Part shown: positions 12,976-59,035 of the stretch, in pieces
How the letters are laid out: every line of letters starts with the position of its first letter
Numbering within the stretch: the first letter of the stretch is position 1
Program-made: the position numbers and the translations under genes
Origin: Agrobacterium vitis
GTDB taxonomy: Bacteria > Pseudomonadota > Alphaproteobacteria > Rhizobiales > Rhizobiaceae
DNA length: 64,000 bases
Direction: 5' to 3'
NCBI RefSeq assembly: GCF_037039395.1
Contig: NZ_CP146243.1
Span: forward strand, 62,001-126,000
Notes under the pieces: generated by a model
Seen by the model: the letters and a program-made list of their open reading frames with translations, nothing else
What the model was told of the DNA's origin: nothing
The model's database searches: none

Positions 12976-14163
12976 ATGGCCCAAATCATCGCGCAAAACA
13001 CCGATATTCCCCTCCAGGAGAGCGGCGCGCCGTCGCTCAGCACGGCGGCTGAGGGTGATGTTTGCGCGCCGCAGGTGTCGGCCGCTGGCACCTCGATGCA
13101 GGCCCCTCCCCTCTCCTCCACCGACGAGCAGATGCCAACGCATCTTGCCAGCCTGGCGGACCGCGCCCGCGACTATGTGGCGGCGGCAAGTTCTGCCAAT
13201 ACCCGAAAAGCCTATGCCTCCGATTGGAAGCATTTTAGCGCCTGGTGCCGGCGTTTGAATTTGGCTCCCCTCCCCCCGGACCCACAGACCGTTGGCCTCT
13301 ATATCACCGCCTGTGCCTCAGGCGAGACCGTTGGCACGCCGACACTTGGCACACCGGCACTTGGCACATCGAAACCTGGCGCCAAGGCAAATGCTGTCTC
13401 GACCGTTGAGCGTCGCCTCTCCTCATTGTCTTGGAACTACGCGCAACGCGGGCTGATGCTCGATCGCAAGGATCGGCATATCGCCACCGTCATGGCCGGC
13501 ATTCGCAACAGCCACGCACGCCCACCCGTGCAGAAGGAAGCGGTGCTGGCCGAGGATATTATCGCCATGATCGAGACACTCGATCGAGGAACATTGCGCG
13601 GCCTGCGCGATCGGGCCATGCTGCTGATCGGCTATGCCGGTGGCCTGCGGCGGTCCGAGATTGTCGGGCTCGACATCAAGGCTGACCAGACCGAAGACGG
13701 GCGCGGCTGGATCGAAATATTCGACAAGGGCATGCTCGTCACCCTGCGCGGCAAGACCGGCTGGCGCGAGGTCGAGATCGGCCGTGGCTCCTCCGACACC
13801 ACCTGCCCGGTGGTGGCTGTTCAAACCTGGATCACCTTTGCCAGGCTTGCCCATGGCCCCCTGTTCCGCCGCGTCACCGGACAAGGCAAGTCCGTTGGCC
13901 CAGAACGCTTGAACGATAAGGAAGTGGCAAGGCTGGTGAAGCGGACTGCCATGGCTGCCGGGGTTCGCGGCGATCTCAGCGAGATCGAGCGCGCCTTCAA
14001 ATTCTCCGGCCATTCCCTGCGCGCCGGTCTCGCCTCCTCCGCCGAAGTCGACGAACGCTATATCCAGAAGCAACTCGGTCATGCCTCAGCCGAGATGACC
14101 CGCAGGTACCAGCGGAGAAGGGATCGCTTCAGGGTCAATCTGACCAAAGCCGCTGGGCTATAG
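12976..14163 (+). CDS. Tyrosine recombinase / site-specific integrase
   Basis: A 395-residue tyrosine recombinase. A SAM-like core-binding domain covers about residues 55-165 (YVAAASSANTRKAYASDWKH) and the catalytic domain about 185-390. Catalytic residues are visible: Arg225 in GGLRRSEIVGL, His346 and Arg349 in GHSLRAGLAS, His369 in LGHASAEM and the nucleophile Tyr378 in RRYQR. A low-complexity TLGTPALGTSKPG insertion lies between the two domains. The ATG at 12976 lacks a strong Shine-Dalgarno; only AAAG precedes it. It is divergent from DUF1403-scpB. A role in plasmid multimer resolution or cassette recombination is likely but inferred. Confidence 0.88.
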   Translation: MAQIIAQNTDIPLQESGAPSLSTAAEGDVCAPQVSAAGTSMQAPPLSSTDEQMPTHLASLADRARDYVAAASSANTRKAYASDWKHFSAWCRRLNLAPLPPDPQTVGLYITACASGETVGTPTLGTPALGTSKPGAKANAVSTVERRLSSLSWNYAQRGLMLDRKDRHIATVMAGIRNSHARPPVQKEAVLAEDIIAMIETLDRGTLRGLRDRAMLLIGYAGGLRRSEIVGLDIKADQTEDGRGWIEIFDKGMLVTLRGKTGWREVEIGRGSSDTTCPVVAVQTWITFARLAHGPLFRRVTGQGKSVGPERLNDKEVARLVKRTAMAAGVRGDLSEIERAFKFSGHSLRAGLASSAEVDERYIQKQLGHASAEMTRRYQRRRDRFRVNLTKAAGL

Positions 14164-17637: not shown

Positions 17638-17780
17638 GATAGCGTCTCCGAAACGGCCGTTCTGTGGACGGTGGCAGTCATCCTCATTCCGACACTGAAA
17701 AATCGTCCATAGAATACGTCTCTTTATTCCCTGCTGTCCATAGATTATCAGGGCCTTTTGTGGACGATTTAGGGGTAGAG
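17638..17780. promoter_or_regulatory. res site and divergent promoters of the Tn3 module
   Basis: The 143 bp between tnpR and tnpA contain repeated half-sites of the type TGTCCATA / TGTGGACG: GTGGACGG near 17663, CGTCCATAGA near 17704, TGTCCATAGA near 17738 and TGTGGACGATTTA near 17759. This arrangement of inverted 6-mers is what a three-subsite resolvase binding region looks like. Confidence 0.7.
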
Positions 17781-26749: not shown

Positions 26750-26809
26750 TAGCCATCAATCGCCAGAGATGGTTTGTCTGCCGCATGTCCACATCATGCG
26801 GAGATAGAA

Positions 26810-27448
26810 ATGCTGATTCTGACCGCTTCCCCGGATCGATACGTCGATCGTTCAAATCTCCTAAAACAGATGCACTGCTTGCGCGCGGCAGTCTTCCGCG
26901 AACGTCTTGAGTGGGAAGTCACGATTACTGAGGCAGGAGAACGAGACGAGTACGACGATTTCGACCCGACCTACATACTTGCGATCACCGATGATGAGAG
27001 GGTCGTCGGCTGCGCTCGTCTCCTTCCGGCAATAGGACCGACCATGCTTGAGCGAACGTTTCCGCAGTTGCTGGCAACCGGTTCCCTCAACGCATCTGAC
27101 CGAATGATCGAAAGCTCCCGCTTTTGCGTCGACACATCCTTGCCTGCGGGCAGGGGAGGGGGGCAACTGCATTTCGCGACACTTACCATGTTTGCAGGCA
27201 TCATCGAATGGTCGATGGAAAACGGCTATGACGAGATCGTCACAGCAACCGACCTCCGTTTTGAGCGCATCTTGAACCGAGCCGGATGGCCAATGAAGCG
27301 GCTTGGCGATCCCGTGGCGATCGGCAACACCGTGGCAGTGGCTGGGACACTTCCAGCCGATCGGGAAAGCTTTGAGCGGGTCCGCCCACCGGACTATCGG
27401 TCGATCATAGCCGGATATCGCGGTCATCAGGTTAGGAGCGCTGCGTGA
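26810..27448 (+). CDS. traI: Acyl-homoserine-lactone synthase TraI
   Basis: A 212-residue LuxI-family synthase making the quorum signal (3-oxo-C8-HSL in Ti plasmids) from S-adenosylmethionine and acyl-ACP. It starts MLILTASPDRYVDRSNLLKQ with GGAG before the ATG. Conserved residues are visible: LRAAVFRERLEWEV, EYDDFDPTYILAI, GCARLLPAIGPTML, ESSRFCVD and VTATDLRFERIL. An upstream in-frame start at 26774 is rejected. It is the first gene of the traI-trb operon; its TGA overlaps the GTG start of trbB. The cognate regulator gene traR is not in this window. Confidence 0.94.
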   Translation: MLILTASPDRYVDRSNLLKQMHCLRAAVFRERLEWEVTITEAGERDEYDDFDPTYILAITDDERVVGCARLLPAIGPTMLERTFPQLLATGSLNASDRMIESSRFCVDTSLPAGRGGGQLHFATLTMFAGIIEWSMENGYDEIVTATDLRFERILNRAGWPMKRLGDPVAIGNTVAVAGTLPADRESFERVRPPDYRSIIAGYRGHQVRSAA

Positions 27449-41696: not shown

Positions 41697-43235
41697 TTAG
41701 AGTGCCTTACTCATCGACCAAGAGGTGCGCTCAGCGATGAATTCCGCGAACGGTTTGACGTTCATGTGGACGCTCGCCTGTCCAAGGCCGGCCAAATAAG
41801 TTGACCGATCCTCAACCCTAACCACTGCCCATGGAAACCCACCCGAGGCGAACATGGCGTTCATCAGGAAGCGCGCCATCCGTCCGTTGCCGTCAGGGTA
41901 GGGATGAACATAGCCTATCAACCAGTGGCCAAGGACTGCCCTAACCGCTGGCTCGCTTTCCTTCTCCAGTAGATCGAACAGGGTCTCCATTCCATCCGGA
42001 ACTGCTTCGGAACGCGGTGGTACATGCCATGATCCGCGGAGATATACAGGGTGGTTTCGATAGCCCGCGAGGGCGCTGGGTTTCAGAATACCTGCGGCGA
42101 CCGACGGGCCGAACAGTTCGCGGTACCAATCCCTATGTTGTTTACGGATAACGGCTCCTGCCGGTGCACCGCGGAGAATCTCAGTAACAGATTCCTTCAC
42201 GCTCTGAAATGCCTGCCAATAACCGCGTGCTGCCAGGGCGTCCCGGTTTTGCCTATCCTGCTGATCCACATCCGGATCCCACGTACCAGCGCGCACGCGA
42301 TCAATGAGTTCCGGAGTAACGCTGTAGCCTTCGATCGAAAGTGAATGGTATGCGTCGTTCTTGTATATGTCCTCGACCGATTTCATGAAAGCGACTGTGT
42401 CCGAGGGAAGTCCGGGTGCAGCAGGAAAAACATCGAGGACCGCCTGACGCTGGCTTTCCCATATAGCATTGAGGCGCGCCACAATGGGAGATCCACCGAC
42501 AGCTAAGGTGGAGACTTGCTGGTTTTGATCGAACGGGTCGGTCTCTCTAACGTCGTACATCGCGCCTTTCATCGTTTTCAAGATATCGTCGGCGAACTCG
42601 CCTTTTCCTATGCGCCGAAATGCCCCGGCCAGGCGGCCTGCCACGGCCGAATGCCCTCCGTCGAGTAATCGACCGAGGACACCCGACACATCGCGCATGG
42701 ATTTCAGCACGATCTGGGCTTCGATAGGTGATCTTTGGAAAAACGCTTCAGCAACTTTTACCAGGGCGGCGTCCGCAGTATAGAACCTCAATCCGTTTTT
42801 CTCGATGAGATCCTCGCGCGGTGGCATTTGCTTGGTCTTGAGATCGTAGATGGATGTGCCAAAAAGCAGTGATAAATTGTTGCCCGTTGCCTTTGGACTG
42901 TTGACGATCACCTGGGGCGGAATCGCAGTTGCTTCTGCGTGGAGTAGCATCGATTGTTCCGGTGACAGATGCCATTCCCGTCCAAAGCGGTCGTTGCAGT
43001 AGAGGGAGCAGAACTCCCAGAATGAAGCGTACCAAAGGGTTGTGTCGCCGTCTTGGGACTGGGGTGCCGTTGACATTTGCCAGCCGCGGATGACTTCTTG
43101 GAGAAATCCGCTCCGTGTAAGGCGCTCTCGGTGTAGTCGGCTGAACTCGTCGGACTTGAATATTCGACGCCCGCCATCCTGCAATGTTTTGAGGGCTTGC
43201 AGGGCGTCAGCCAACTTTTCATTTGGTGTAGCCAT
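41697..43235 (-). CDS. Fic family protein (AMPylase-type)
   Basis: A 512-residue protein with a C-terminal Fic domain. The active-site loop is HPYPDGNGRMAR beginning at His444 (consensus HPFx(D/E)GNGRxxR), so transfer of AMP (or another nucleotide moiety) to target hydroxyls is expected. An upstream S-L-S-I-E-G segment (Ser298 to Gly303) matches the autoinhibitory (S/T)xxxE(G/N) motif, so activity is probably self-restrained. The N-terminal 290 residues are unrecognised (MATPNEKLADALQALKTLQD). The ATG at 43235 is preferred over one at 43289 because homologues, as I recall, begin there. It stands alone between IS relics, preceded by a 24-bp tandem array. Target unknown. Confidence 0.87.
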   Translation of the reverse strand: MATPNEKLADALQALKTLQDGGRRIFKSDEFSRLHRERLTRSGFLQEVIRGWQMSTAPQSQDGDTTLWYASFWEFCSLYCNDRFGREWHLSPEQSMLLHAEATAIPPQVIVNSPKATGNNLSLLFGTSIYDLKTKQMPPREDLIEKNGLRFYTADAALVKVAEAFFQRSPIEAQIVLKSMRDVSGVLGRLLDGGHSAVAGRLAGAFRRIGKGEFADDILKTMKGAMYDVRETDPFDQNQQVSTLAVGGSPIVARLNAIWESQRQAVLDVFPAAPGLPSDTVAFMKSVEDIYKNDAYHSLSIEGYSVTPELIDRVRAGTWDPDVDQQDRQNRDALAARGYWQAFQSVKESVTEILRGAPAGAVIRKQHRDWYRELFGPSVAAGILKPSALAGYRNHPVYLRGSWHVPPRSEAVPDGMETLFDLLEKESEPAVRAVLGHWLIGYVHPYPDGNGRMARFLMNAMFASGGFPWAVVRVEDRSTYLAGLGQASVHMNVKPFAEFIAERTSWSMSKAL

Positions 43236-43309
43236 TTTGGTTCTCACGACCTCGTTGTTCTTGCGCGAACTCACAATGCCGCGTCTCATAAGGCAATGCT
43301 TGCATCATT

Positions 43310-47802: not shown

Positions 47803-48534
47803 CTGGCTTGCAGTTGCCTACGTTTTGGGTTGGGCGTAAATTCTGGCCTTTGCCAGTGACATCGCCGCTGAGCTGGAGCTGAAGCTGGCTTCAGCGCCGA
47901 AGAAAAGGTTGGATCACAAGCGGCTGAGCCATCTGCCGAAGCACTTTTTTGGGATCGAAGCAATCCTGTGCCCGCCCGGTAGCTGGAAGGAGGAAGGCGT
48001 TCCGCCACCGGATTTCGTGCAGAAATCCTTGAGAGAGTTGTATCGTGGGGAGGAGGCTAGCGCCGTAGGCAAGGATCATCGGGATGCGGTCATCCGTCGC
48101 CTCGTGGAGCCGAGCAGCCTTGTCGTCAGCAGCGATGTTGGTCGTCGCTTGCCGGACGGTCCTTCGATCCGCGTTAGGCAACATGACGTGGACGTTCCGA
48201 CGATCACTTTTATTTCAGGGCGAACGACGGATGATCGGACGCCGAAAATCACCAACAATCCCGAAGCCCCGCAAGGGTGAGGTAAATGGCGGCGCTCTTG
48301 CGCCGCCGGCGAACTTCATGAACGGGATAGGGTCTCTGCCCTAAGGTCATGCAGGAGCAAAGAGATCGAGCCAGTCTTCTCAAATCTTGCGACAATACAA
48401 ACAGTTAGCGATTGACTCTTCGAATGATCCTCTAGAAATTCCACCCATAGGCACGTGCCTGCGAGATTGGGGTGAGCTATGCTGCTTTTGTAGACCTTGA
48501 ATGGGGAAAGCCTTCTCTAGACCGCCGCCATAAC
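47803..48534. other. Gene-poor stretch before the exporter operon
   Basis: About 730 bp. A plus-strand frame near 47850-47960 reads AELELKLASAPKKRLDHKRL and may be an IS66-type relic, but this is weak. The right part should contain the promoter of the exporter operon. TTGACT at about 48414 is one -35 candidate; no matching -10 is obvious. Confidence 0.35.
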
Positions 48535-48548
48535 ACAACTGTACTAAT
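48535..48548. promoter_or_regulatory. 14-bp motif upstream of the HlyD-ABC operon
   Basis: ACAACTGTACTAAT lies 152 bp before the HlyD-type start. It matches ACAGCTGTACTAGT upstream of the GG-leader peptide gene (52615-52628) at 12 of 14 positions. A shared regulator is plausible. Confidence 0.5.
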
Positions 48549-48699
48549 TACATTGCGGTGTGTTTTGCGATAAATGATGCACTCATATTAATGAAAGCCG
48601 CAGCAGGACGCCAAGCCGCGGATAAGAGTAACGGCGTCCGCGATGGTTACGACCTTACGGAGCATCGCACTTCAGGCTCCCAACCGCCAGGAGCCGACC

Positions 48700-49992
48700 T
48701 TGAAACACGAACCTCCACATCTCTTCCGTCCAGAAGTTCGTGAAGCTCAGTCTCTCGGTTGGATGGGTAGACCGGTTGTCATTCAGAGCTTACCGTTTCA
48801 ATTGAGTGCGGTGGTGTCGCTGTTGCTCGTTGCCGCCGCTGTCTTGATGATAACATTCGGGCACTACGCACGGCGAGTCCGGGTTGAGGGGATCATGATG
48901 CCTTTGACTGGAATCAGCCGCATTGCTTCACCCCAGAACGGATGGATCAGCAAGCAATGGGTTAACGACGGAGACAAAGTCTTTCTCGGTCAACCGTTGT
49001 ACACTCTTCGCCTCGATATCACGGCGTCGAGTGGATCCACCGAAGAAGCTGTGATCGCTTTATTGAGAGAGAAGAGAGGAGTTTTACGCGCTGACCTCGG
49101 CAGGCAGGATGCGATCAACCGAGAAAAAAAGGCCGGACTAGAACACGTTCGCCAGAGTGTCGAAGCCGAGGGAAGGCTGATTGACGACCAGATTGCCCTG
49201 GCGTCGGAACATGTTGATCTGTTGAAGGCAATGGCCGACAAGCAGAAGGCCAATTTAAAACGCGGCTTTGCCAAGGATTCTGATTACGAACCACGCCTGC
49301 AGAACGTCATGTCACAGCAGGCACAGATAAAACAATTGATGCGTGATCGAGCCGAAATCGAGACGCGCTTACAAGACACTTTGTCCCAGCTAGCCTCTTT
49401 CGATCTCAACGCCGCGTCCGAGCTAAGCAAAATGAAGCAGGAAATCATCGACGTCGAACAACGGCTTTCTGAGAGCGAAGCAAAATGGGAAATCACTCTC
49501 ACTGCGCCGAGAGATGGCACTGTAACTGCGCTAATCGGCCACGTTGGTCAGACGGTTTCCAGTGGCGCGCCGCTTCTTTCGGTTCTGCCCGAAGGCGATC
49601 CGCTATCAGCGCAGTTGCTCGTCCCCAGCAGTGCCATCGGCTTCGTCAAGGAGGGGCAACGCGTTCTCATGCGCTATGATTCGTTCCCTTATCAGAAATT
49701 TGGACAATACCGCGGGGTGGTCGCCGCAATCTCTGGTACGACGCTGTCGGGAGAAGAAATGCAGGTCTCCGGCCTGGGAACACCAGAAGCCGGCCAGCGT
49801 GAACATATGTACCGCGTCACCGTTCACCCCGACCAACCAGCGGTACTTGCATACGGAAAATTGGTCTCGATACAACCTGGAATGAAATTGGAGGCAAGCA
49901 TCTTGGCTGACGCGCGCCCACTCTATCAGTGGATATTGGATCCGCTTTACAGTTTGGGACGCGCAACTTCCACGGACGGATTAGTCCGATGA
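48700..49992 (+). CDS. HlyD-family membrane-fusion protein (bacteriocin exporter adaptor)
   Basis: A 430-residue periplasmic adaptor linking the ABC exporter to an outer-membrane channel. From a TTG at 48700 it reads (M)KHEPPHLFRPEVREAQSLGW. One membrane helix lies near residues 36-57 (LSAVVSLLLVAAAVLMITFG). A biotinyl-lipoyl half-domain (GISRIASPQNGWISKQWVND), a long coiled coil (residues about 110-270) and a C-terminal beta barrel (VLMRYDSFPYQKFGQYRGVV, as in CvaA/RaxA) follow. AGGAG six bases upstream supports the TTG; an ATG at 48643 in the same frame lacks such a site. The ABC gene overlaps its stop (ATGA), so the two are coupled. Confidence 0.87.
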   Translation: MKHEPPHLFRPEVREAQSLGWMGRPVVIQSLPFQLSAVVSLLLVAAAVLMITFGHYARRVRVEGIMMPLTGISRIASPQNGWISKQWVNDGDKVFLGQPLYTLRLDITASSGSTEEAVIALLREKRGVLRADLGRQDAINREKKAGLEHVRQSVEAEGRLIDDQIALASEHVDLLKAMADKQKANLKRGFAKDSDYEPRLQNVMSQQAQIKQLMRDRAEIETRLQDTLSQLASFDLNAASELSKMKQEIIDVEQRLSESEAKWEITLTAPRDGTVTALIGHVGQTVSSGAPLLSVLPEGDPLSAQLLVPSSAIGFVKEGQRVLMRYDSFPYQKFGQYRGVVAAISGTTLSGEEMQVSGLGTPEAGQREHMYRVTVHPDQPAVLAYGKLVSIQPGMKLEASILADARPLYQWILDPLYSLGRATSTDGLVR

Positions 49993-52124
49993 ATGTCCCG
50001 CCAGTCCTGTCCCTTCTCAGCTCAAAAATGTCCAGCGGAATGCGATCACAGCCGCCGATCATCATACAAGCTGAAGCAACCGAATGCGGTCTTGCGTGCA
50101 TGGCGATGCTTGCTGGTCATTATGGCTATCAGATCGATTTGCCAGCAATTCGGCGCAAATTTCCGACTTCCCTCAAAGGCGTCACAATTCGCAATCTTGT
50201 AACGATGGGCGCGGCGCTTGGGCTCGCCACCCGAGCGCTACGAGCGGAGCTAAGTGCACTCTCGAAGCTACGGTTGCCTTGTATTCTTCACTGGGATCAT
50301 AACCACTTCGTGCTTTTAACCAAGGTCGGTCGGCGCAGTCTCGTCCTTCATGATCCAGGCCACGGTCGGCGCGTCATCAAGATCAGCGAGGCGTCAAAGC
50401 ACTTTACTGGTGTTGCGCTTGAGGCCTGGCCGACAGAAAAATTCGAGAAGACGGAAAAAGACGCAGTGAGCGTTTGGAGAATGGTCTCAAGAACGCAGGG
50501 TCTCGGCAGAGTCGTCCTAGCGATCCTCGCGCATTCCCTCCTTCTCGAAACAGTGACGATTGCGATGCCGATCGGCTTCCAGCTCGTTTTAGACCAGGTT
50601 GTCGTGACGTCAGATTACGACCTTCTGGCTCTGATAGCCATCGGCCTTTCTGCTCTTCTGTTTATGAAGGTCTTTCTTGGATTTATCAGGTCAAGGACAG
50701 CCCTTGGCGTCGGGTCGAGCATTACCCTTCAGTGGAAGGTCGGGCTGTTCGACAAATTGATGCAGCTTCCTCTCGATTTCTTCGAGAAACGCCATGTGGG
50801 GGATATTGTGTCCCGGTTCGGGTCCCTGGATGAAATCCAGAGAACCGTTACCAACAAGGCGGTTTTCGCCATGGTGGATGGCCTGATGTCGATTGCGCTC
50901 GTTGCGATGATGATCATTTACGGTGGTAGCCTCGTATTCGTCGCGATCGCCTCCGTCTGCCTCTATGCCGTCTTGCGTTCGCTCACCTACCCCCGATATC
51001 GTGCCTTGTCCGACGAGGCGATTATCCATGAAGCTAAAGAACAGTCTCACTTCATTGAGACCGTGCGCGGGGCGGCAAGCCTCAAAGCACTCGGTCTTGA
51101 GAAGCAACGCCGCTCCCTTTGGACGAACTATCTTGTCGAACGCGTCAGCGCAAACATAGAGACCGAGAGATTCAACCTTGTTTTTCAGGCGGCAGCGCAA
51201 GCCCTTTTCGGAGCGGATCGAATCCTCATGATTTACCTGGGAGGCCATGCCATTCTCGGGGGAACCCTTTCCGTCGGGATGTTCGTCGCTTTCTTGACAT
51301 ACAAAGATCAGTTTGCCGACAGGATCAATAGCTTCCTCGACACAGCAATTTCTCTACGCATGATGTCTCTGCACGGAGAGAGAATTGCGGATATTGCCTT
51401 GACTACCGACGAGCAAACCTATCCGGCACCTATTGTAAGCGTCGATAGGACCGCTGCTGCATATGGGTCGTTGGCGTTGCGGGACATTGCCTTCCGATAT
51501 TCGGAGAACGAGCCGGAGGTCCTGTCCGGGATAGATCTGGATATTCCCGCAGGGGCATGTTTAGGAATCGCAGGGCCTTCTGGCGCAGGAAAATCGACAC
51601 TGCTTAAAATCATGGGTGGACTGATAAAACCAACGCGCGGCGAGGTATCATTCTCCGGCCAGTCCATCGCCGCACTGGGGCTTGCAAATTTCCGCGATCA
51701 TGTTGGCTTTGTACTCCAGGAAGACCGGCTATTTGCGGGATCCATTGCCGAGAATATTGCAGGTTTTGCAGGTGAAGTTGACGTCAGGCATGTGCAATTC
51801 TGCGCGGAGGTTGCCGCTATTCATGCCGATATCATGCGCATGCCAATGGGATACGACAGCGTAGTCGGCGATATGGGAAGTGCTTTGTCAGGAGGGCAGA
51901 GGCAGAGAATCGTGCTCGCCAGGGCGCTGTATCGCAAGCCCAAGATCCTTTTTCTCGATGAAGCGACAAGCCATCTGGATGAGGAGAATGAAGAGCGCGT
52001 GAACCAGGCCATCAAGCATCTGCCCATAACACGCGTTATTGTGGCTCATAGGCCCTCGTCTCTTGCTGTTGCCGATATGCTAATGCGAGTCGGCAGATCA
52101 GAAAAGCCAACTTCTGCCCTCTGA
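49989..52124 (+). CDS. Peptidase-containing ABC exporter (C39, CvaB/LagD type)
   Basis: A 711-residue exporter that cleaves double-glycine leaders and secretes the cargo. The N-terminal C39 peptidase carries Gln27, Cys33 (ECGLACMAMLAG), His106 (HWDHNHFVLL) and Asp122 (LHDPGHG), a complete catalytic set. Six membrane segments occupy about residues 165-440. The nucleotide-binding domain has GPSGAGKST (from residue 529), signature LSGGQRQR (about 634) and Walker B ILFLDEA (about 657). The ATG at 49989 overlaps the HlyD stop. The likely substrate is the GG-leader peptide encoded convergently at 52310-52516. Confidence 0.93.
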   Translation: MNVPPVLSLLSSKMSSGMRSQPPIIIQAEATECGLACMAMLAGHYGYQIDLPAIRRKFPTSLKGVTIRNLVTMGAALGLATRALRAELSALSKLRLPCILHWDHNHFVLLTKVGRRSLVLHDPGHGRRVIKISEASKHFTGVALEAWPTEKFEKTEKDAVSVWRMVSRTQGLGRVVLAILAHSLLLETVTIAMPIGFQLVLDQVVVTSDYDLLALIAIGLSALLFMKVFLGFIRSRTALGVGSSITLQWKVGLFDKLMQLPLDFFEKRHVGDIVSRFGSLDEIQRTVTNKAVFAMVDGLMSIALVAMMIIYGGSLVFVAIASVCLYAVLRSLTYPRYRALSDEAIIHEAKEQSHFIETVRGAASLKALGLEKQRRSLWTNYLVERVSANIETERFNLVFQAAAQALFGADRILMIYLGGHAILGGTLSVGMFVAFLTYKDQFADRINSFLDTAISLRMMSLHGERIADIALTTDEQTYPAPIVSVDRTAAAYGSLALRDIAFRYSENEPEVLSGIDLDIPAGACLGIAGPSGAGKSTLLKIMGGLIKPTRGEVSFSGQSIAALGLANFRDHVGFVLQEDRLFAGSIAENIAGFAGEVDVRHVQFCAEVAAIHADIMRMPMGYDSVVGDMGSALSGGQRQRIVLARALYRKPKILFLDEATSHLDEENEERVNQAIKHLPITRVIVAHRPSSLAVADMLMRVGRSEKPTSAL

Positions 52125-52192
52125 AAAACAGCAAGACGTTTGCCGAGCTCGTGAATTTTCGATCAAAAAGATGGTACGCATTCACTAATTGT

Positions 52193-52226
52193 GCGGCCGA
52201 GCCCTTTCTGCAAAAGGCTCGGCCGC
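52193..52226. terminator. Bidirectional terminator hairpin between exporter and peptide genes
   Basis: GCGGCCGAGCC, a 12-nt loop, then GGCTCGGCCGC: a perfect 11-bp GC-rich stem, 68 bp after the ABC stop and 84 bp after the convergent peptide stop. T tracts are short on both sides. Confidence 0.75.
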
Positions 52227-52309
52227 TTCTGAAGACTCATAAGATGAACTTTGATCGGGTGATCTACAAATCCGTCGCAACTATCACGGAAGTCGATCTC
52301 CCCAAGCCA

Positions 52310-52516
52310 TCATTTTGGCCAGCACACGTCATAATAAACGTAGCTGCCGCCCTTGGTGATTGTGGTCATCGATCCGCCGCCTGCGATGCCCGTGTGTTCG
52401 AACTTGTATCCCGCAGCTTCGAAAGACAAGCCGCCACTGACGTTATCAAGCTCGGTATCAGTTAACTCGCGCAGGGTCGAATACGAATCTTCCTGCGAAA
52501 CCATCAAATGTTCCAT
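52310..52516 (-). CDS. Double-glycine-leader peptide (bacteriocin precursor candidate)
   Basis: A 68-residue precursor. The leader MEHLMVSQEDSYSTLREL continues TDTELDNVSGG, ending at Gly28-Gly29. This is the class II bacteriocin/microcin leader consensus (LxxxELxxVxGG) recognised by C39 exporters. The predicted mature peptide has 39 residues, is Gly-rich (GIAGGGS, KGGS), has one Cys near the end (YYDVCWPK) and a net charge near neutral. AGAGGA lies 7 nt upstream of the ATG. It is convergent with the C39 exporter, separated by a terminator. No immunity gene is obvious nearby. The product could be an antibacterial peptide or a signal; its sequence family is not one I recognise. Confidence 0.82.
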   Translation of the reverse strand: MEHLMVSQEDSYSTLRELTDTELDNVSGGLSFEAAGYKFEHTGIAGGGSMTTITKGGSYVYYDVCWPK

Positions 52517-52614
52517 GTTATTTCCTCTTTTGATAACATTGAAGCGGACAGCCTGAAAGGCACATGGCCACCCGCAAAAAAATAAACAATAGAAGTGCAT
52601 AAGGCGCAATTAGA

Positions 52615-52628
52615 ACAGCTGTACTAGT
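52615..52628. promoter_or_regulatory. 14-bp motif upstream of the GG-leader peptide gene
   Basis: ACAGCTGTACTAGT, 99 bp before the peptide start, shared with 48535-48548. The LuxR-type fragment immediately beyond it suggests, but does not prove, that this is an activator site. Confidence 0.5.
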
Positions 52629-52667
52629 CGCGACAGGCAACTGATGGAGGTGCTGGTAGAATGCCCA

Positions 52668-52856
52668 TCACTCCAACTGCTTGTCATATACATTGATCAA
52701 GCCTTCACTGATGCCCTTGGTCACTGCTGCAGAGCGTGACGAAACGCCAAGCGCGCGCCCCATCGCTGACACGTGGATTCGAACCATGAAGGGAGATATT
52801 GACAAGATCACCGCAATTTCCTTGTTTGTCTTGCCAGCTGACGTTGGTGCGCGGCT
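52668..52856 (-). pseudogene. LuxR-type regulator, C-terminal DNA-binding fragment
   Basis: The minus strand reads GKTNKEIAVILSISPFMVRI, then HVSAMGRALGVSSRSAAVTK and a stop at 52668. This is a LuxR/NarL helix-turn-helix. The N-terminal sensory part is missing; the frame runs into the IS5 element at about 52860. The fragment lies on the same strand as, and upstream of, the peptide gene, so it was probably its regulator. Confidence 0.78.
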
Positions 52857-52893
52857 CAGCTAATCAGCGGATCTCGTTCTTTGATGGGTCCGC

Positions 52894-53892
52894 TTATTTG
52901 GCTGCTCCTGCCGAGGCTCGGCAACGAACGGATTTCGGTCGTCCGCAGGCGAGCATTCGGTTAAGAATGGCGACGCCGATCGCAGCTTCGGTCTGTTGAG
53001 CGAGGAATGACCGAGCGCGCAAACGCTGTCCAATGACGCCTTTATATCGACCCATCGCGGTTTCAACCAATGCTCGTTTGCCATAGCCGGTAGATGCCTG
53101 CCATTTAAGCCGGCCGTCTATCTGCACGGATGCGATGTGGTCGTGTCTCTGGCAGAACGCCTGGGCGTTGGGCTTTTCAACCGCATTCGAGCGCGGTGGA
53201 ATGACTACCCTTGCTCCTGGGCTGTGACGCAGGACAACGTCATAGGTGGGAGCACCATCATAGGCTCCATCGGCAGTGAACTGATCAATCTCATTGTTGA
53301 TCTGATCCAGCAAAGGTTCCAGTTGCGAGGCATCTCCAGTTTCTTGATCTGTCAGGCTATGGGCAATAATCTCGCCACTATCGGTATCAATAGCCAGGTG
53401 CAGTTTTCGCCAGTTGCGGCGGGACTTTACGCCATGCTTCTCCTCGAGCCATTGGCCGGCGCCATAGACCTTGAGCCCAGTACTGTCGACCACAACATGA
53501 ATGGGTCCGTCCGCCACATGCGGCCGGTCGTTGCCTCTGCCTGATGGCTTCCAGGTTCTGGCCCGTCGGCTTAGCGTGGTGTGATCGGGCACAGGCAGAT
53601 CCAATCCCATCATGTCCAGCACCGAACTCAGCAGGCCTTTGCTCTGGCGCAAACGCAGCCCAAACACCATGCCCAGCATCAGAGTAGTTTCGATCGCCAG
53701 ATCCGAATAGAGAGGCTGGCCACCACGCGTCCTGCGACGTGGAGCAGCCCAGCCCGCCAGCGCATCGGGAGTTATCCAAAATGTAAAGCTGCCACGGCGG
53801 CGAAGGCCCGCCTCATACTCCGCCCAGTTCGTCACTTTGAACTTCATCTTACCGATGCGATGGCGACGGGAGGCGTTATGTTTGTGCGGCAT
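52894..53892 (-). CDS. IS5-family (IS903 group) transposase
   Basis: A 332-residue DDE transposase: MPHKHNASRRHRIGKMKFKV, YEAGLRRRGSFTFWITPDAL, PDHTTLSRRARTW, IHVVVDSTGLKVYGAGQW (first Asp), QFTADGAYDGAPTYDVV (second Asp) and ETAMGRYKGVIGQRLRAR (Glu region). It looks intact. The element, roughly 52860-53970, cuts a LuxR-type gene on the left and an IS110 transposase on the right. I could not settle its terminal repeats. Confidence 0.9.
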   Translation of the reverse strand: MPHKHNASRRHRIGKMKFKVTNWAEYEAGLRRRGSFTFWITPDALAGWAAPRRRTRGGQPLYSDLAIETTLMLGMVFGLRLRQSKGLLSSVLDMMGLDLPVPDHTTLSRRARTWKPSGRGNDRPHVADGPIHVVVDSTGLKVYGAGQWLEEKHGVKSRRNWRKLHLAIDTDSGEIIAHSLTDQETGDASQLEPLLDQINNEIDQFTADGAYDGAPTYDVVLRHSPGARVVIPPRSNAVEKPNAQAFCQRHDHIASVQIDGRLKWQASTGYGKRALVETAMGRYKGVIGQRLRARSFLAQQTEAAIGVAILNRMLACGRPKSVRCRASAGAAK

Positions 53893-53969
53893 GCTGGATC
53901 AATCAACCTATTTTCGATCCCGGCCCCATAGATGCAAAATGTTGAAATTTGATCCCCGCACCAACGCCG

Positions 53970-54651: not shown

Positions 54652-55479
54652 CTAGTTCAGTCCGAGCGTGCCACGGAGCTTGGATAGGTCTTCGGCAAGC
54701 GTCGTGACTGGGCCGGCAAGAGCCTTGCGGTCGGCGTCAGTAAGCTTGTCGTAGGTCTCAAAACCGTCCTTTCTCTTGTATTTGGCAAGGATGCCGTCGA
54801 CCGTTGTAAAATTCTCATCGATCTTCTTCAGCAGAGCCGGATCCTCCTGCTTGATCAGCGGCGTGAGGAGATCAACAATCTTCTTGGCACCGTCGACATT
54901 GCCCTGGAAGTCATAAAGGTCGGTATGGCTGTAGCGATCTTCCTCACCCGTGATCTTAGTCGCTGCCACTTCTTCGATCAGCGCGGCAGCACCGCCTACG
55001 ACTTTTTCCGGCGGGAAGGTCAGGCCCTTCACGCGCGTTTGCAATTCCGTCACGTCTGCATAAAGCTTGTCGGCGAGTGCGCCGAGATCCTTGGCCGAAT
55101 TCTCGTGAAACAGGCTATATTCGATCCGGTGGAAGCCTATAAAGTCGGCAGACTTCTCTTTCTGCTCATGATCATCGGCGCGCGAGTCGATAGCGGCGTC
55201 GAGATCGGAGAATAGCTCGGCGACCGGCTCGATCTTTTCATAGGTCACACGCGTCGGGGCATACAGCATCTTGGCCTTTTCCAGGTCGCCAGCCTTGACC
55301 GCATCGGTAAAGGCCTTGGTGTCCTTGGCCAGCGTGGCAAGATTTTTCTCGACATAAATTTTGTAATCAGCGATCGGCTGGACGAGATCTTCAGGGGCGA
55401 CCTTGGCCTGGGCGAGGCCCGTGCTGGCCAGAAGGACCGTTGCGAAGACCGTGGACAGAAGCGAAGTGCGACGTATCAT
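54652..55479 (-). CDS. M75/imelysin-type iron-uptake lipid-free protein (EfeM-like)
   Basis: A 275-residue periplasmic protein. The signal peptide is [19 protein letters not shown]. The imelysin (peptidase M75) domain carries the GxHxxE motif in [18 protein letters not shown] and continues to [20 protein letters not shown]. It lacks the cupredoxin domain found in the companion EfeO. The ATG at 55479 has AAGGAAC upstream; an in-frame ATG at 55515 overlaps the efeB end. It is the last gene of the efeUOB operon, 32 bp after efeB. A role in periplasmic ferrous/ferric iron handling is inferred. Confidence 0.87.
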
Positions 55480-55511
55480 GAGGCTTGTTCCTTGGGTTGG
55501 AGAAATGCGGG

Positions 55512-56834
55512 TCAACCGCGTACATTCACGGGGCCGGTTGCTTCGAGAAGACCACGCCCGAGAAAATCCTGTTTGTCCTTGACGCCAGGCAGAACGAAAA
55601 AATAACCGCCGCCGATCGGCTTGAGATATTCCTCAAGCGGCTCGCCATTGAGCTTGTTTTGAACGTGAATGAACCCCTTCTCGAGATCGGCCTGATAGGC
55701 GATGAAGAGAAGGCCCATTTCCAGCTGCCCTGCCTTGCTGACGCCATTGGAATAATTGAATGGTCGACGCAGGATGAGATGTGCCTCAGCCTCTTTATCG
55801 CGCGCGTTGGCGAGCCGAATATGCGACGTCAGCGGCGTGACCTTGCCATCTGGATCGTTGGCATAGTCAGGAATGTCGGCCTCGACCCTGCCGCCGAATG
55901 GTGCGCCGCTGTCCTTCTGGCGGCCGATGATCGTCTCTTGCTCTTGCAAGGGCGTGCGATCCCAACGCTCGACAAAATTGCGGATGATGCGCACTGCCTG
56001 ATAGCTGCCATGGGCGGCCCAGGCGGGTTCGTCGCTGTCCTGCTGCACCCAGACGATCCTGTCCATGAGCCCGGAATTGCCGGAATCCGGGTTGGCGCTG
56101 CCGTCTCGGAAGCCGAGGAAATTGCGGGCACTTTCCTTCGCCTTTTCCGAATGCGGCGGTTGCACCGGGACGCTGCCTTCCTGTTTCCACCGCACCATCA
56201 TGAGGTCCGGCATATTTTTGATGACGTCCCGCAGCGCATGGATATTGGTGTCCTGCGTGTTCGAGCAGAACTGGATCAGGATATCGCCGTGGCAAAGCTC
56301 GTGCTGCAATGCGTCGTTCGGGAAATCTTTCATAGGCTGCAGACGCTTCGGCTTGGCATCTTTCAAACCAAAGCGATCGTCGAACAGGGAATTGCCGATC
56401 GAAACGGTAATTGTCAGATTGTCCGGGGTAACGACGGGGCCAAGGATGCCGGAATCGGCTGGCGGAAATTTGGGGGCGAGCTGTGGAACCGGCCCACCCT
56501 TCATCAGGAAAGCAGCGCGCTCCGTCAGGGTGCGGAAAAGCCGCTCAAGGTCTGCGCGGTTCTGGGCCAACACGTCGAAGGCAACGACGAGGCCTGCCGC
56601 CGGACGCGGCGTGACAATGCCTGACTGGTGCATGGCATAGAAAGGCTGGCTCTCCTCCAGCTTGTCGCTTTCTGGCGCATTGGTCACTGCGCTTGGCATC
56701 ATGTTGTCAGATGCCGATGCGCCTCTCGCACCGGCAATAACGCCCGCCGCGCCCATGCCTGCGCCGATCAGCAGGCAGCGGCGCTCAGGCGAAACAAGGA
56801 TATTATCGTCTTTTGTCTTGTTCTGGTGTGTCAT
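55512..56834 (-). CDS. efeB: Dye-decolorizing peroxidase EfeB
   Basis: A 440-residue Dyp-type haem peroxidase exported by Tat: [17 protein letters not shown] near residues 15-31. The GFRDG motif with catalytic Asp244 lies in [13 protein letters not shown]. The proximal His region is [12 protein letters not shown]. It oxidises Fe2+ or haem-linked substrates to feed EfeO/EfeU under low-iron or acidic conditions. The start ATG shares one base with the efeO stop (TGATG), indicating coupling. Full length. Confidence 0.93.
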
Positions 56835-58024
56835 CAGCTTAATCTCAGATTTTGGAGAAGCTTGCCGAGGTCGGCGGCAAGAGCTGCGGCCTGCTTCTTC
56901 AGGTCGGACTTGTCGTCTTCGGTAAGAGTGGAATAGCGCACATAGCCTTCAGTGCTGCGGTGCTTTCGAAGCGTCATCTGAAGGGAGGTGATGTTCTTAT
57001 CGACCTGCTCTGTCAGCGAGGGGGCCGTCTTGGCGGCGATTGGTTTGATAAGATCGGCCACCTTCTGCACGCCTGATAGCGCCGCATCGAAAGAGGCAAG
57101 ATCGCTATGGGCGTAGCGGTCTTCATCAAGCCCAGGCCCGGCCGTGGCGAAACGGTCCATCGCAGCGGCAGCCCCTGATATCATTTGGGCTGGCGTGATA
57201 CGAAGGTCATGGATGCGATCCGCCAGGGCCTGCGCGTTAGCGGCAAGCTTGTTTGCCACCGGTGCCATTTCTTCGAGACTGTTGTTCGAGAACAGGCCAA
57301 ACTCGATCCTGTGCAGCCCAACAAAGGCGGGATCCTGCTCTTTCTTCTCGAAATAATCAGCACGCGCTTCGATCGTCCTGTCGAGATCGGAAATCTGGCC
57401 GGCAATCGGCAAGAGATGGGCATAGACGATGCGTGCGGGCTCGTAGAGCGAGCGAACCTTTGCCAGGTCTGCAGCCTTGATGGCTTCCGCAAGGTCATTC
57501 GCAGCGGTCACGAAACCATCGGTCTCGCTGGCAAGGTACACCTTGTATTCCGCCATCGCGCCGATGAAGGCCTTCATCGAGGGCTGGGCGGCGGCTTGAG
57601 CTCCGCTGGCCGCGGCCGTAACATGCAGGGTGCCACGCGGGTTTGACAGCAGGCCGCAGGTGATCTGGTAAGTGCCGGGCTCCAGCATCGCCGTCAGGCT
57701 CTGGGTGAAGCCGGGGGCGATGTTTTCACGCTCTTCCAGAACCATGACGCCATCAAGGATTTCCCATTCGACAGCGCGATCCGACGTGTTGACGATCTCG
57801 AAAACGGTGCGGCCAGCCGGCACAGTCAGTTCGTTCGGATTGCAGCTTTTGCCAGCAATCGTCACCGTTACCGCGCCGCCTGCGGTGGTCTTCCTTACGG
57901 CGTGCGAATAACGCGAGGCATAGTAGAACGCCGTGCCCGAAACGAGCACCAGGACGGCAGATATCCCGATGCCAGCAGCCAAGAGCTTGCGCGGAAGGAT
58001 ATCCTTGGAGGGAATGCCATTCAT
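56834..58024 (-). CDS. efeO: Iron-uptake periplasmic protein EfeO (cupredoxin plus M75)
   Basis: A 396-residue periplasmic protein. An N-terminal anchor or signal (LLAAGIGISAVLVLVSGTAF) is followed by a cupredoxin domain (AGKSCNPNELTVPAGRTVFE to YQITCGLLSNPRGTLHVTA) and an M75 domain with the GxHxxE motif (FVGLHRIEFGLFSNNS). This two-domain layout is that of E. coli EfeO. The ATG at 58024 (MNGIPSKDILPRK) is 14 bp after efeU. A longer frame upstream overlaps efeU and is rejected. Confidence 0.93.
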   Translation of the reverse strand: MNGIPSKDILPRKLLAAGIGISAVLVLVSGTAFYYASRYSHAVRKTTAGGAVTVTIAGKSCNPNELTVPAGRTVFEIVNTSDRAVEWEILDGVMVLEERENIAPGFTQSLTAMLEPGTYQITCGLLSNPRGTLHVTAAASGAQAAAQPSMKAFIGAMAEYKVYLASETDGFVTAANDLAEAIKAADLAKVRSLYEPARIVYAHLLPIAGQISDLDRTIEARADYFEKKEQDPAFVGLHRIEFGLFSNNSLEEMAPVANKLAANAQALADRIHDLRITPAQMISGAAAAMDRFATAGPGLDEDRYAHSDLASFDAALSGVQKVADLIKPIAAKTAPSLTEQVDKNITSLQMTLRKHRSTEGYVRYSTLTEDDKSDLKKQAAALAADLGKLLQNLRLS

Positions 58025-58038
58025 TGAGATAGGTCTTT

Positions 58039-58881
58039 TCAGATTTTGCGCGCGGAATGAGAAGTTTGGACTTCTGGCGCGGGTGGATACGGCGCGAGGA
58101 AAAGGAACAGGGTGGTCGTCAAAAAGACGACATAGACCGTCACTTCGCTGATTGTCGGCGCATCGATATAGCCGAGAATACCGCCCAGGACTGAACCAAG
58201 AGGACTGTCGAGCGGCAGTCGGTCGCTCAGATCGAAGACGACGGACTGAAGATGGTTCCACAAGCCGGCTTCATGCAAGGCCTTGACCGCATTGGCCAGA
58301 ATGCCTGCCGCAACGATAAGGATGAAGACGCCCGTCCAGCGGAAGAAATGGCGCAGATTGAGCTTCAGGCCGCCCACATAGATGCCGCACCCGACGAGAA
58401 CGGCGAGAACAACGCCCAAAAGCGCTCCAAGTGGGGCGAGCCCGCTGTCTGACTGCTGGAATGTGGCAAGAAGGAAGAAGACCGATTCCAAGCCTTCGCG
58501 CACCACAGCCAAAAATGCCATGGTGGCAAGCCCGAAACCGCCGGAATGCGAGGCTAATGCTTCATCGATGGAGTGATGAAGCTCTGCCTTGATGGAGCGG
58601 GCCGCCTTGCGCATCCAAAACACCATCGATGTCAACACGATGACGGCGACCATGCCAATCACGGCCTCGAACAGCTCTTGCGCTTTCTGCGGAAACTCGG
58701 CGCTGACGACCTGCAGTCCGGCACCAACGAACAGCGAAACCGCGATTGCGAGCAGGATGCCGATCCATACAACAGGCATCCACATGCCGCGTCCGGTCTG
58801 TTTAAGATAGCTTGCAATTATCCCCACGATCAACGCCGCTTCGACGCCCTCGCGAAACATGATGAGAAACGGTGCAAGCAT
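58039..58881 (-). CDS. efeU: Ferrous iron permease EfeU (FTR1 family)
   Basis: A 280-residue polytopic inner-membrane permease with seven predicted helices. Two REGxE iron-passage motifs are present: REGVE at residues 10-14 and REGLE at 128-132. It starts MLAPFLIMFREGVEAALIVG, at the conserved N-terminus. It is the first gene of efeUOB plus the M75 gene. A minus-strand TTGACT near 58945 is a possible -35; no clear iron box (Irr or RirA type) was recognised. Confidence 0.94.
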   Translation of the reverse strand: MLAPFLIMFREGVEAALIVGIIASYLKQTGRGMWMPVVWIGILLAIAVSLFVGAGLQVVSAEFPQKAQELFEAVIGMVAVIVLTSMVFWMRKAARSIKAELHHSIDEALASHSGGFGLATMAFLAVVREGLESVFFLLATFQQSDSGLAPLGALLGVVLAVLVGCGIYVGGLKLNLRHFFRWTGVFILIVAAGILANAVKALHEAGLWNHLQSVVFDLSDRLPLDSPLGSVLGGILGYIDAPTISEVTVYVVFLTTTLFLFLAPYPPAPEVQTSHSARKI

Positions 58882-59035
58882 GTCAGTGTCTTTAATGTTG
58901 CTATGGGAGGAGAAAGCGTTGGGCCAGCAAATAGGACTAACAAAGTCAACTTTGTGGCAAACTTCAATGGCGTTACTTATGTTCACCGTCATGTGATCGC
59001 GGCAGCCGTGTTGCATCAATTAGGTTCCGTACGAG

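What the first reader, a model, noticed from the sequence alone, without database searches (positions are those of the whole stretch)
48535..52860. Compact GG-leader peptide secretion cassette on a rhizobial plasmid
An HlyD adaptor and a C39-peptidase ABC exporter with a full catalytic set sit tail-to-tail with a 68-residue gene whose leader ends TDTELDNVSGG. The mature 39-residue peptide is Gly-rich with one Cys and resembles no bacteriocin family I know. No immunity gene is evident. It may be a new microcin or a secreted peptide signal of root-associated bacteria.
Basis: partly seen in the sequence, partly recalled or inferred. Interest (0 to 1): 0.86.

Follow-up and report, generated by a model that had tools for sequence, protein, structure and literature searches.

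The report
Signal-controlled peptide export cassette
A Rhizobium-type plasmid carries a small exported peptide and its export machine, and both genes have the same DNA switch, which elsewhere travels with a sensor family known to detect fatty-acid signals from other bacteria.

Summary
In detail: HlyD adaptor, C39-peptidase ABC exporter and 68-aa GG-leader peptide stand as described. The peptide is no orphan: a syntenic copy lies on a Rhizobium sp. L51/94 plasmid (exporter 90% identical, peptide 57%), and a profile finds relatives in Agrobacterium, Pseudomonas and Paracoccus. The cassette is a remnant: L51/94 also encodes a LuxR-type response regulator and a hybrid histidine kinase; here an insertion sequence leaves only the regulator's last 47 codons. 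The kinase family is that of PA1396, the fatty-acid (DSF) sensor of Pseudomonas aeruginosa. A dyad, TAGNACANNTGTNCTA, lies about 95 bp upstream of both peptide and exporter genes. At one mismatch or fewer it occurs 22 times in six exporter loci with the kinase, 0 times in 82 without it; all nine peptide carriers among 398 Pseudomonas genomes have exporter, dyad and, somewhere, the kinase. This genome keeps such kinases and a regulator on another replicon. Best reading: a fatty-acid-type two-component system turns on synthesis and export of a small all-beta peptide. Export and co-regulation are well supported; the signal is inferred, the peptide's action unknown. No immunity gene was seen.

The parts
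48531..48546 (.). Dyad TAACACAACTGTACTA (1 mismatch to TAGNACANNTGTNCTA), 96 bp upstream of the HlyD ATG; inferred regulator operator
   Evidence: the 12-mer ACARCTGTACTA occurs exactly twice in 6.04 Mb, both in this cassette; L51/94 has the dyad at the same place
48643..49992 (+). HlyD-family membrane fusion adaptor (449 aa from this ATG; start codon not proven)
   Evidence: 84% identical to L51/94 over 409 aa
49989..52124 (+). C39-peptidase ABC exporter (711 aa)
   Evidence: 89.9% identical to L51/94
52310..52516 (-). 68-aa double-glycine-leader peptide gene, convergent with the exporter
52430..52516 (-). Leader, codons 1-29, ending NVSGG
   Evidence: pN 0.125, pS 0.451 against L51/94
52313..52429 (-). 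Core, codons 30-68, predicted four-stranded beta meander (block pLDDT 78-82)
   Evidence: pN 0.466, pS 0.434 against L51/94
52611..52626 (.). Dyad TAGAACAGCTGTACTA (0 mismatches), 94 bp upstream of the peptide ATG; inferred regulator operator
   Evidence: the only perfect match in the own genome
52668..52811 (-). Remnant of a LuxR/NarL-type response regulator (47-aa ORF, C-terminal helix-turn-helix part only)
   Evidence: (GerE E 0.0039, below cut-off), 34, 43: 72% identical over 74 aa to the intact L51/94 regulator; DNA homology ends at 52840
52844..53964 (.). IS element of IS5-like kind (label recalled; DDE transposase 52894-53892, -) that cuts the regulator gene; ends inferred from a 13/15 inverted repeat
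   Evidence: (PF13737, PF01609)

Best explanation
The cassette makes and exports a small all-beta peptide when a PA1396/PA1397-type two-component system is active. Inferred order of steps: a membrane hybrid histidine kinase of the family that senses DSF-type cis-2-unsaturated fatty acids leads to phosphorylation of a LuxR/NarL-type regulator. The regulator binds a 7-2-7 dyad about 95 bp upstream of both the peptide and the hlyD-ABC genes and switches them on together. The C39 domain cuts after Gly29, and the ABC/HlyD pair, with a TolC-type channel from elsewhere in the genome (not searched for), releases the 39-residue core. On this plasmid the regulator is cut and the kinase absent next to an IS. 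Control must therefore come in trans, from the kinases at C4:402059 (73% to the L51/94 kinase) and C4:507492 and the regulator at C4:506844 (same recognition-helix stretch), or be lost. For the peptide's action my first guess is a class II microcin-like competition peptide made when neighbours' fatty-acid signals are sensed; a surface or biofilm role comes next. Shown by sequence: parts, synteny, leader conservation, dyads and their linkage to the kinase family. Inferred: binding, signal, cleavage, activity.
For: Synteny and homologues. Kinase plus exporter in several lineages: 8 of 90 exporter loci have the kinase at 44-100% identity over at least 480 aa, 6 after removing near-duplicate Paracoccus; four more have only a generic kinase at 23-29%, not counted. 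Dyad at <=1 mismatch: 22 sites in 5 of 6 kinase+exporter loci (Markov mean 0.0; 13 of the 22 come from two closely related Pseudomonas loci and 3 from L51/94, where the motif was first seen), 0 in 82 exporter loci without the kinase (1.30 Mb, Markov 0.9), 7 sites in 7 of 12 kinase loci without exporter (Markov 0.1), 2 in the window (0.02); then 5 of 7 further kinase loci fetched after the motif was fixed (no shuffle run there). Peptide family in a genus that includes Pseudomonas cerasi: 9 of 398 genomes; 9 of 9 have HlyD+C39-ABC beside it and 9 of 9 a dyad in the gap between peptide and HlyD (Markov total 0.1), though only 4 of 9 have the kinase nearby. All 9 genomes carry the kinase (base rate 141 of 396; about 8e-5 by my arithmetic if genomes were independent, which relatives are not). 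Family identity: 33 of 33 residues named for PA1396 in PMC6536496 match one aligned kinase (L146) at the same positions, and its E8 is kept in 12 of 13 others.
Against: No binding, expression or secretion data. The dyad is tied to the regulator only by co-occurrence. In this strain the plasmid's own regulator is broken and the distal regulator is only 53% identical to the L51/94 one. DSF response is proven only for PA1396 (48.6% identical to the L51/94 kinase). Of 18 PA1396 positions compared, the L51/94 kinase keeps 9 and differs at 9, among them L123 and L128 of the triple change that abolished the DSF response of PA1396 in liposomes (PMC6536496 passages). The core shows no purifying signal against L51/94 (pN 0.466, pS 0.434, 37 codons), so it may be drifting. 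The Paracoccus ferrooxidans locus L005 has dyads only at 2 mismatches, and 2 of 7 late kinase loci have none at <=1. One review passage has PA1396 acting through an HPt protein to PA1397 (PMC4504480); I did not look for one.
Confidence: 0.6

Rival explanations
1. Peptide pheromone: the exported core is itself the ligand of the linked kinase, a Gram-negative counterpart of the ComC/ComAB/ComDE type of double-glycine peptide signalling (that comparison recalled).
For: Peptide, exporter, kinase and regulator are linked in L51/94, Phyllobacterium, Paracoccus and Pseudomonas; peptide and exporter share the dyad, as a positive loop would; no immunity gene. Three exporter-linked kinases (Phyllobacterium and two Paracoccus) form one well-supported clade, and the exporter label is somewhat clustered on the tree (23 of 500 shuffles as low).
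Against: All exporter-linked kinases together are not one clade (4 changes forced by well-supported branches); 12 of 12 kinase loci picked without regard to peptides lack exporter and GG ORF by my pattern; only 9 of 141 kinase-bearing genomes of one genus gave a peptide-family match at E <= 1e-6 (samples of 398 and 396); 5 of 9 peptide loci have no kinase nearby; E8 of the PA1396 input domain is kept in kinases whose neighbouring peptides differ completely.
Confidence: 0.15
2. Conventional class II microcin or bacteriocin cassette whose regulator is incidental.
For: GG leader, C39 exporter and HlyD are the classical parts (recalled); other loci with the dyad carry hydrophobic GG peptides of bacteriocin-like look (L004 1386-1601, L063 14483-14698); the core differs from that of L51/94 as much at non-synonymous as at synonymous sites.
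Against: No immunity gene in the 227-bp and 154-bp gaps around the peptide in L51/94 or seen in the window cassette; Pseudomonas group B cores are nearly identical to one another, which fits escalation poorly; dyads in the peptide-HlyD gap of 9 of 9 Pseudomonas loci speak for regulation as part of the system.
Confidence: 0.2
3. Decaying remnant: after loss of its regulator the cassette is silent and the peptide core is drifting.
For: Regulator cut by an IS, kinase gone; core pN equals pS; IS and transposon genes lie around the cassette; this core is the outlier of its subfamily.
Against: Exporter and adaptor are under strong purifying selection against L51/94 (pN/pS 0.056/0.524 and 0.084/0.534) and the leader also (0.125/0.451); both dyads, the ribosome site and the C39 residues are kept. 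The regulator loss may simply be recent, so this is not excluded.
Confidence: 0.25

Closest known systems
PA1396/PA1397 two-component system of Pseudomonas aeruginosa (PMC6536496 and PMC4504480, passages read)
   Same: Same kinase architecture (membrane input domain, HisKA, HATPase, receiver) and family: 33 of 33 published residues identify the reference kinase in L146, which is 48.6% identical to the L51/94 kinase; adjacent LuxR-type regulator; a dyad at 1 mismatch also lies near it (L146 10294).
   Different: No GG peptide or C39 exporter annotated beside it in L146; its reported outputs are pmr genes, biofilm and antibiotic tolerance; the passages read say that the part of PA1397 is unsettled. 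In the window strain the genes act, if at all, from another replicon.
Class II microcins with C39 exporter, HlyD adaptor and GG leader, such as microcin V with CvaAB (recalled; PMC9746304 and PMC10233263 seen as search listings)
   Same: GG leader, C39-ABC, HlyD partner, short core.
   Different: No immunity gene seen, core predicted all-beta, no sequence match (Pfam MccV hits 1 of 23 members at E 0.15), shared dyad linked to a two-component system.
Small secreted GG proteins of Synechococcus elongatus that enable biofilm development (PMC4997328, start of abstract in search listing)
   Same: GG-motif small proteins with a non-bacteriocin role shown.
   Different: Cyanobacterial; sequences not compared here. 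The best NCBIfam match of the window peptide is the 'CTB family bacteriocin' model (cyan_ocin_like), 22.5 bits against a cut-off of 32.
RaxX peptide of Xanthomonas with the RaxABC exporter (RaxX recalled; PMC4216712 seen as search listing)
   Same: Plant-associated bacterium, small peptide, ABC-type exporter (recalled).
   Different: No sequence comparison made; a sulfotransferase gene was not searched for here.

Membership tests
C39 peptidase-containing ABC exporter | N-terminal C39 peptidase with catalytic Cys, His, Asp fused to ABC transmembrane and ATPase domains | tested here: met
   PF03412, PF00664, PF00005 in order; Q27, C33, H106, D122 invariant in five exporters
Double-glycine-leader secreted peptide | Short precursor with a conserved leader ending GG/GA, beside a C39 exporter | tested here: met
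   L18, E22, V26, G28 invariant and L23 nearly so in 23 aligned members; exporter adjacent in the window, L51/94 and 9 of 9 Pseudomonas loci
Class II microcin / bacteriocin | Antibacterial activity of the mature peptide | not testable with these tools
   needs an assay
Class II microcin / bacteriocin | Cognate immunity gene in the cluster | tested here: not met
   none recognised in the window cassette or in the gaps around the peptide in L51/94; immunity encoded elsewhere is not excluded
CTB family bacteriocin (NF038167) | score at or above curated cut-off 32 | tested here: not met
   22.5 bits
PA1396-type DSF-sensing two-component system (for the linked kinase of relatives; absent from the window) | Homologous input domain with the E8 glutamate, HisKA-HATPase-receiver, adjacent LuxR-type regulator | tested here: met
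   E8 kept in 12 of 13 kinases
PA1396-type DSF-sensing two-component system (for the linked kinase of relatives; absent from the window) | Autophosphorylation in response to cis-2-unsaturated fatty acids | not testable with these tools
   9 of 18 compared PA1396 positions differ in the L51/94 kinase, L123 and L128 among them
Double-glycine peptide pheromone system | Receptor kinase dedicated to and co-inherited with the peptide | tested here: not met
   exporter-linked kinases not one clade, though three are; 12 of 12 other kinase loci without exporter or GG ORF; 5 of 9 peptide loci without a nearby kinase

The most novel reading that the evidence does not exclude
An unrecognised regulon in Proteobacteria: PA1396-family (fatty-acid-signal) two-component systems act through a 7-2-7 dyad (TAGNACANNTGTNCTA) on GG-leader peptides and their exporters, plus autotransporters and lipoproteins, so that bacteria release small all-beta peptides when they overhear the fatty-acid signals of other species. 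The plasmid cassette here is a satellite of that regulon, run in trans by a system on another replicon.
Probability: 0.35. Interest if true: 0.8.

Novelty: new variant of a known kind. Interest (0 to 1): 0.62.

Why it matters
The passages I read on PA1396/PA1397 say that how PA1397 acts is unresolved. A concrete candidate operator that tracks this kinase family across several lineages makes that testable by a gel shift and a reporter. It also ties two fields: interspecies fatty-acid signalling and export of microcin-like peptides. If right, one dyad search would list the secreted peptides and surface proteins that many plant- and soil-associated bacteria deploy on hearing neighbours.

Tried and rejected
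Single-sequence search of the peptide in 5.8 billion proteins found only itself, and 297 genomes of the order gave only the own genome: the peptide alone would have looked like an orphan. Profile A4 over 397 genomes of the order gave matches in 12; the own one is strong, the other 11 genomes weak (E 6e-5 to 8e-4, 26 bits or fewer, mostly leader positions), and I did not count them. A small genus near Pseudomonas gave 0 of 13. The exporter search in the own genus (E <= 1e-100, 18 candidates scored per genome) found only the own genome among 63.

Immunity candidates: a BamE-like lipoprotein between regulator and kinase of L51/94 had no clear relative in the other loci scanned, so I dropped it. 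Core similarity beyond the rhizobial subfamily is modest: window core against shuffled cores gave 0 of 2000 as high for the four closest relatives, 17 and 23 for two Pseudomonas B cores, 126 and 59 for D, 186 and 185 for E, 257 for Paracoccus C; C, D and E belong by leader, place and (D, E) dyad rather than by core. Rows dropped: 29 of 52 profile hits, E 1.3e-2 and above, were left out of A4. Kinase loci: of 18 places listed, 15 lie in the 12 loci I examined; G534, G783 and G265:C17 were not fetched.

Literature: no paper on a PA1397 operator was seen in searches (listings; passages of two papers read); searches gave nothing on this link in their listings; a RaxX/PctB search returned none. That the dyad is unreported rests on these searches alone.

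Full report
What is there. The window lies on contig C3 of a 6.04-Mb genome; RepA-like, RepB and RepC genes are within it, so it is a repABC-type replicon, most likely a plasmid. Mature core: 39 residues, 7 Gly, one Cys.

The peptide has relatives. A single-sequence search finds only itself, but Rhizobium sp. L51/94 carries a syntenic cassette on a 365-kb plasmid: 82% DNA identity over 84% of the query, exporter 89.9%, peptide 57%. A five-sequence profile then gave 52 hits, 23 of them (the query included) at E <= 1e-10. They form three groups: rhizobial (A), Pseudomonas (B) and Paracoccus-like (C). Leader positions L18, E22, V26 and G28 are invariant. The four other group A cores match the window core better than any of 2000 shuffles, two group B cores better than about 99%, and C, D and E not significantly.

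The cassette is a remnant. In L51/94 the peptide is followed by an intact LuxR-type response regulator (213 aa), a small lipoprotein and a hybrid histidine kinase. The window keeps only the last 47 codons of the regulator as an ORF (72% identity over 74 aa); DNA homology stops at 52840 and an IS with a 13/15 inverted repeat starts at 52844. Beyond the far side of the IS lies an IS110-type transposase fragment, not the rest of the regulator, so this is a rearrangement rather than a simple insertion. Elsewhere the genome has a kinase 73% identical to that of L51/94 at C4:402059 (no regulator beside it) and a second kinase-regulator pair at C4:507492/506844 next to an autotransporter. That regulator shares the stretch SPFTVRIHVSA with L51/94; the window remnant reads SPFMVRIHVSA, PA1397 of L146 SHYTVRIHVSS.

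The same module elsewhere. Of 90 exporter loci examined besides the window, 8 carry this kinase at 44-100% identity over at least 480 aa: L51/94, Phyllobacterium zundukense, three Paracoccus records of one near-identical type, P. denitrificans, Pseudomonas cerasi and P. syringae pv. cilantro; 7 of the 8 also have the regulator. They carry different GG peptides, some hydrophobic, one beside a radical SAM enzyme. The exporter-linked kinases do not form one clade (4 changes forced by supported branches), although the Phyllobacterium and two Paracoccus ones do and the label is mildly clustered (23 of 500 shuffles as low). Twelve kinase loci taken without regard to peptides, two of them from the own genome, have neither exporter nor GG ORF by my pattern. 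So the sensor as a family is not dedicated to the peptide.

A shared operator. Both window promoters carry ACARCTGTACTA; it occurs exactly twice in the genome, both times here. It is part of a 7-2-7 dyad, TAGNACANNTGTNCTA, 94 and 96 bp upstream of the peptide and hlyD start codons; L51/94 has it at both places too. With at most one mismatch it occurs 22 times in six kinase+exporter loci (5 of 6 loci; Markov expectation 0.0), 0 times in 82 exporter loci without the kinase (1.30 Mb; expectation 0.9), 7 times in 12 kinase loci without exporter (7 loci; expectation 0.1) and twice in the window (expectation 0.02). The 22 are not all independent: 13 come from two related Pseudomonas loci and 3 from L51/94, where the motif was first seen. 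Kinase loci fetched after the motif was fixed: 5 of 7 positive, without a shuffle control. In the own genome the only perfect site is the peptide promoter; the three sites at one mismatch are the hlyD promoter, one on C2 that I did not study, and one upstream of the autotransporter beside the C4 regulator. Tail-to-tail heptamers 2 bp apart are, from memory, the arrangement bound by NarL-type regulators.

A second test. In the genus of genome G656, 9 of 398 sampled genomes have the peptide family at E <= 1e-6. All nine loci have HlyD and C39-ABC beside the peptide and a dyad (<= 1 mismatch) in the gap between peptide and HlyD; only four have the kinase within the 17 kb fetched. Two of the nine (L150, L151) lie on contigs of the same length as those of L074 and L063 (P. 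syringae pv. cilantro, P. cerasi), which names the genus and leaves seven new loci. The kinase is nevertheless present in all nine genomes against a base rate of 141 of 396. Trans control, as I propose for the window strain, is thus not exceptional.

What the sensor detects. One member, on a P. aeruginosa plasmid (L146), matches 33 of 33 residues printed for PA1396 in PMC6536496 (passages read) at the same positions. PA1396 responds to DSF-family cis-2-unsaturated fatty acids. The L51/94 kinase is 48.6% identical to it; of 18 positions compared it keeps E8, Y116, L117, T121, W138, P142, M144, P156 and Y158 and differs at the other nine, L123 and L128 among them. So the signal class is a reasonable inference, not shown.

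Selection. Against L51/94, pN/pS is 0.056/0.524 for the exporter, 0.084/0.534 for HlyD, 0.125/0.451 for the leader and 0.466/0.434 for the core. The machine and its recognition tag are kept; the cargo is free or diversifying. Pseudomonas group B cores in contrast are nearly constant.

Structure. An AlphaFold2 model from 23 sequences gives a four-stranded beta meander for the core (block pLDDT 78-82; whole model 67, pTM 0.43), with no significant known neighbour.

Verdict. The export cassette and its co-regulation are well supported, its link to a PA1396-type system is supported statistically, and the peptide's activity is open. I score it as a new variant of a known kind: the parts are known, while the peptide family, the operator and the regulatory link were not seen in the searches made here.

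Noticed in passing
G000 C4:502706-502721 and L030 5707-9603: The same dyad (1 mismatch) lies about 90 bp upstream of the listed start of a 1087-aa autotransporter ORF next to the C4 kinase/regulator pair. In Enterobacter sp. 638 (L147) the pair also neighbours two autotransporter genes and two dyads, though not directly upstream of those genes.
   Followed up: partly
L006 8145-9775 (Paracoccus denitrificans): A dyad, a GG peptide with two Cys and a radical SAM enzyme follow a related C39 exporter: a possible modified-peptide branch of the same regulon.
   Followed up: partly
L063 14483-14833 and L004 331-1601: Further GG peptides of unrelated core (hydrophobic type; two-Cys type) with dyads nearby, so one regulator may serve several cargos.
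   Followed up: partly
L002 12833-13340: BamE-like small lipoprotein (22.1 bits, cut-off 23.2) between regulator and kinase with a dyad upstream at 13340; no clear relative in the other loci scanned.
   Followed up: partly
window 26774-27448: LuxI-type autoinducer synthase (PF00765 E 8.8e-68) between repABC and type IV secretion genes.
   Followed up: no
window 54652-59019: EfeO/EfeB/EfeU-like iron uptake genes (imelysin, Dyp peroxidase, FTR1; system name recalled) beyond the IS elements next to the cassette.
   Followed up: no
window 41697-43289 and 17664-20744: Fic-domain protein (PF02661) and a Tn3-type transposase on the same replicon.
   Followed up: no
L007 4087-4562 (Methylobacterium bullatum): Two tandem, nearly identical Gly-rich GG peptides upstream of a related exporter; similar single ones in L047 and L057.
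   Followed up: no
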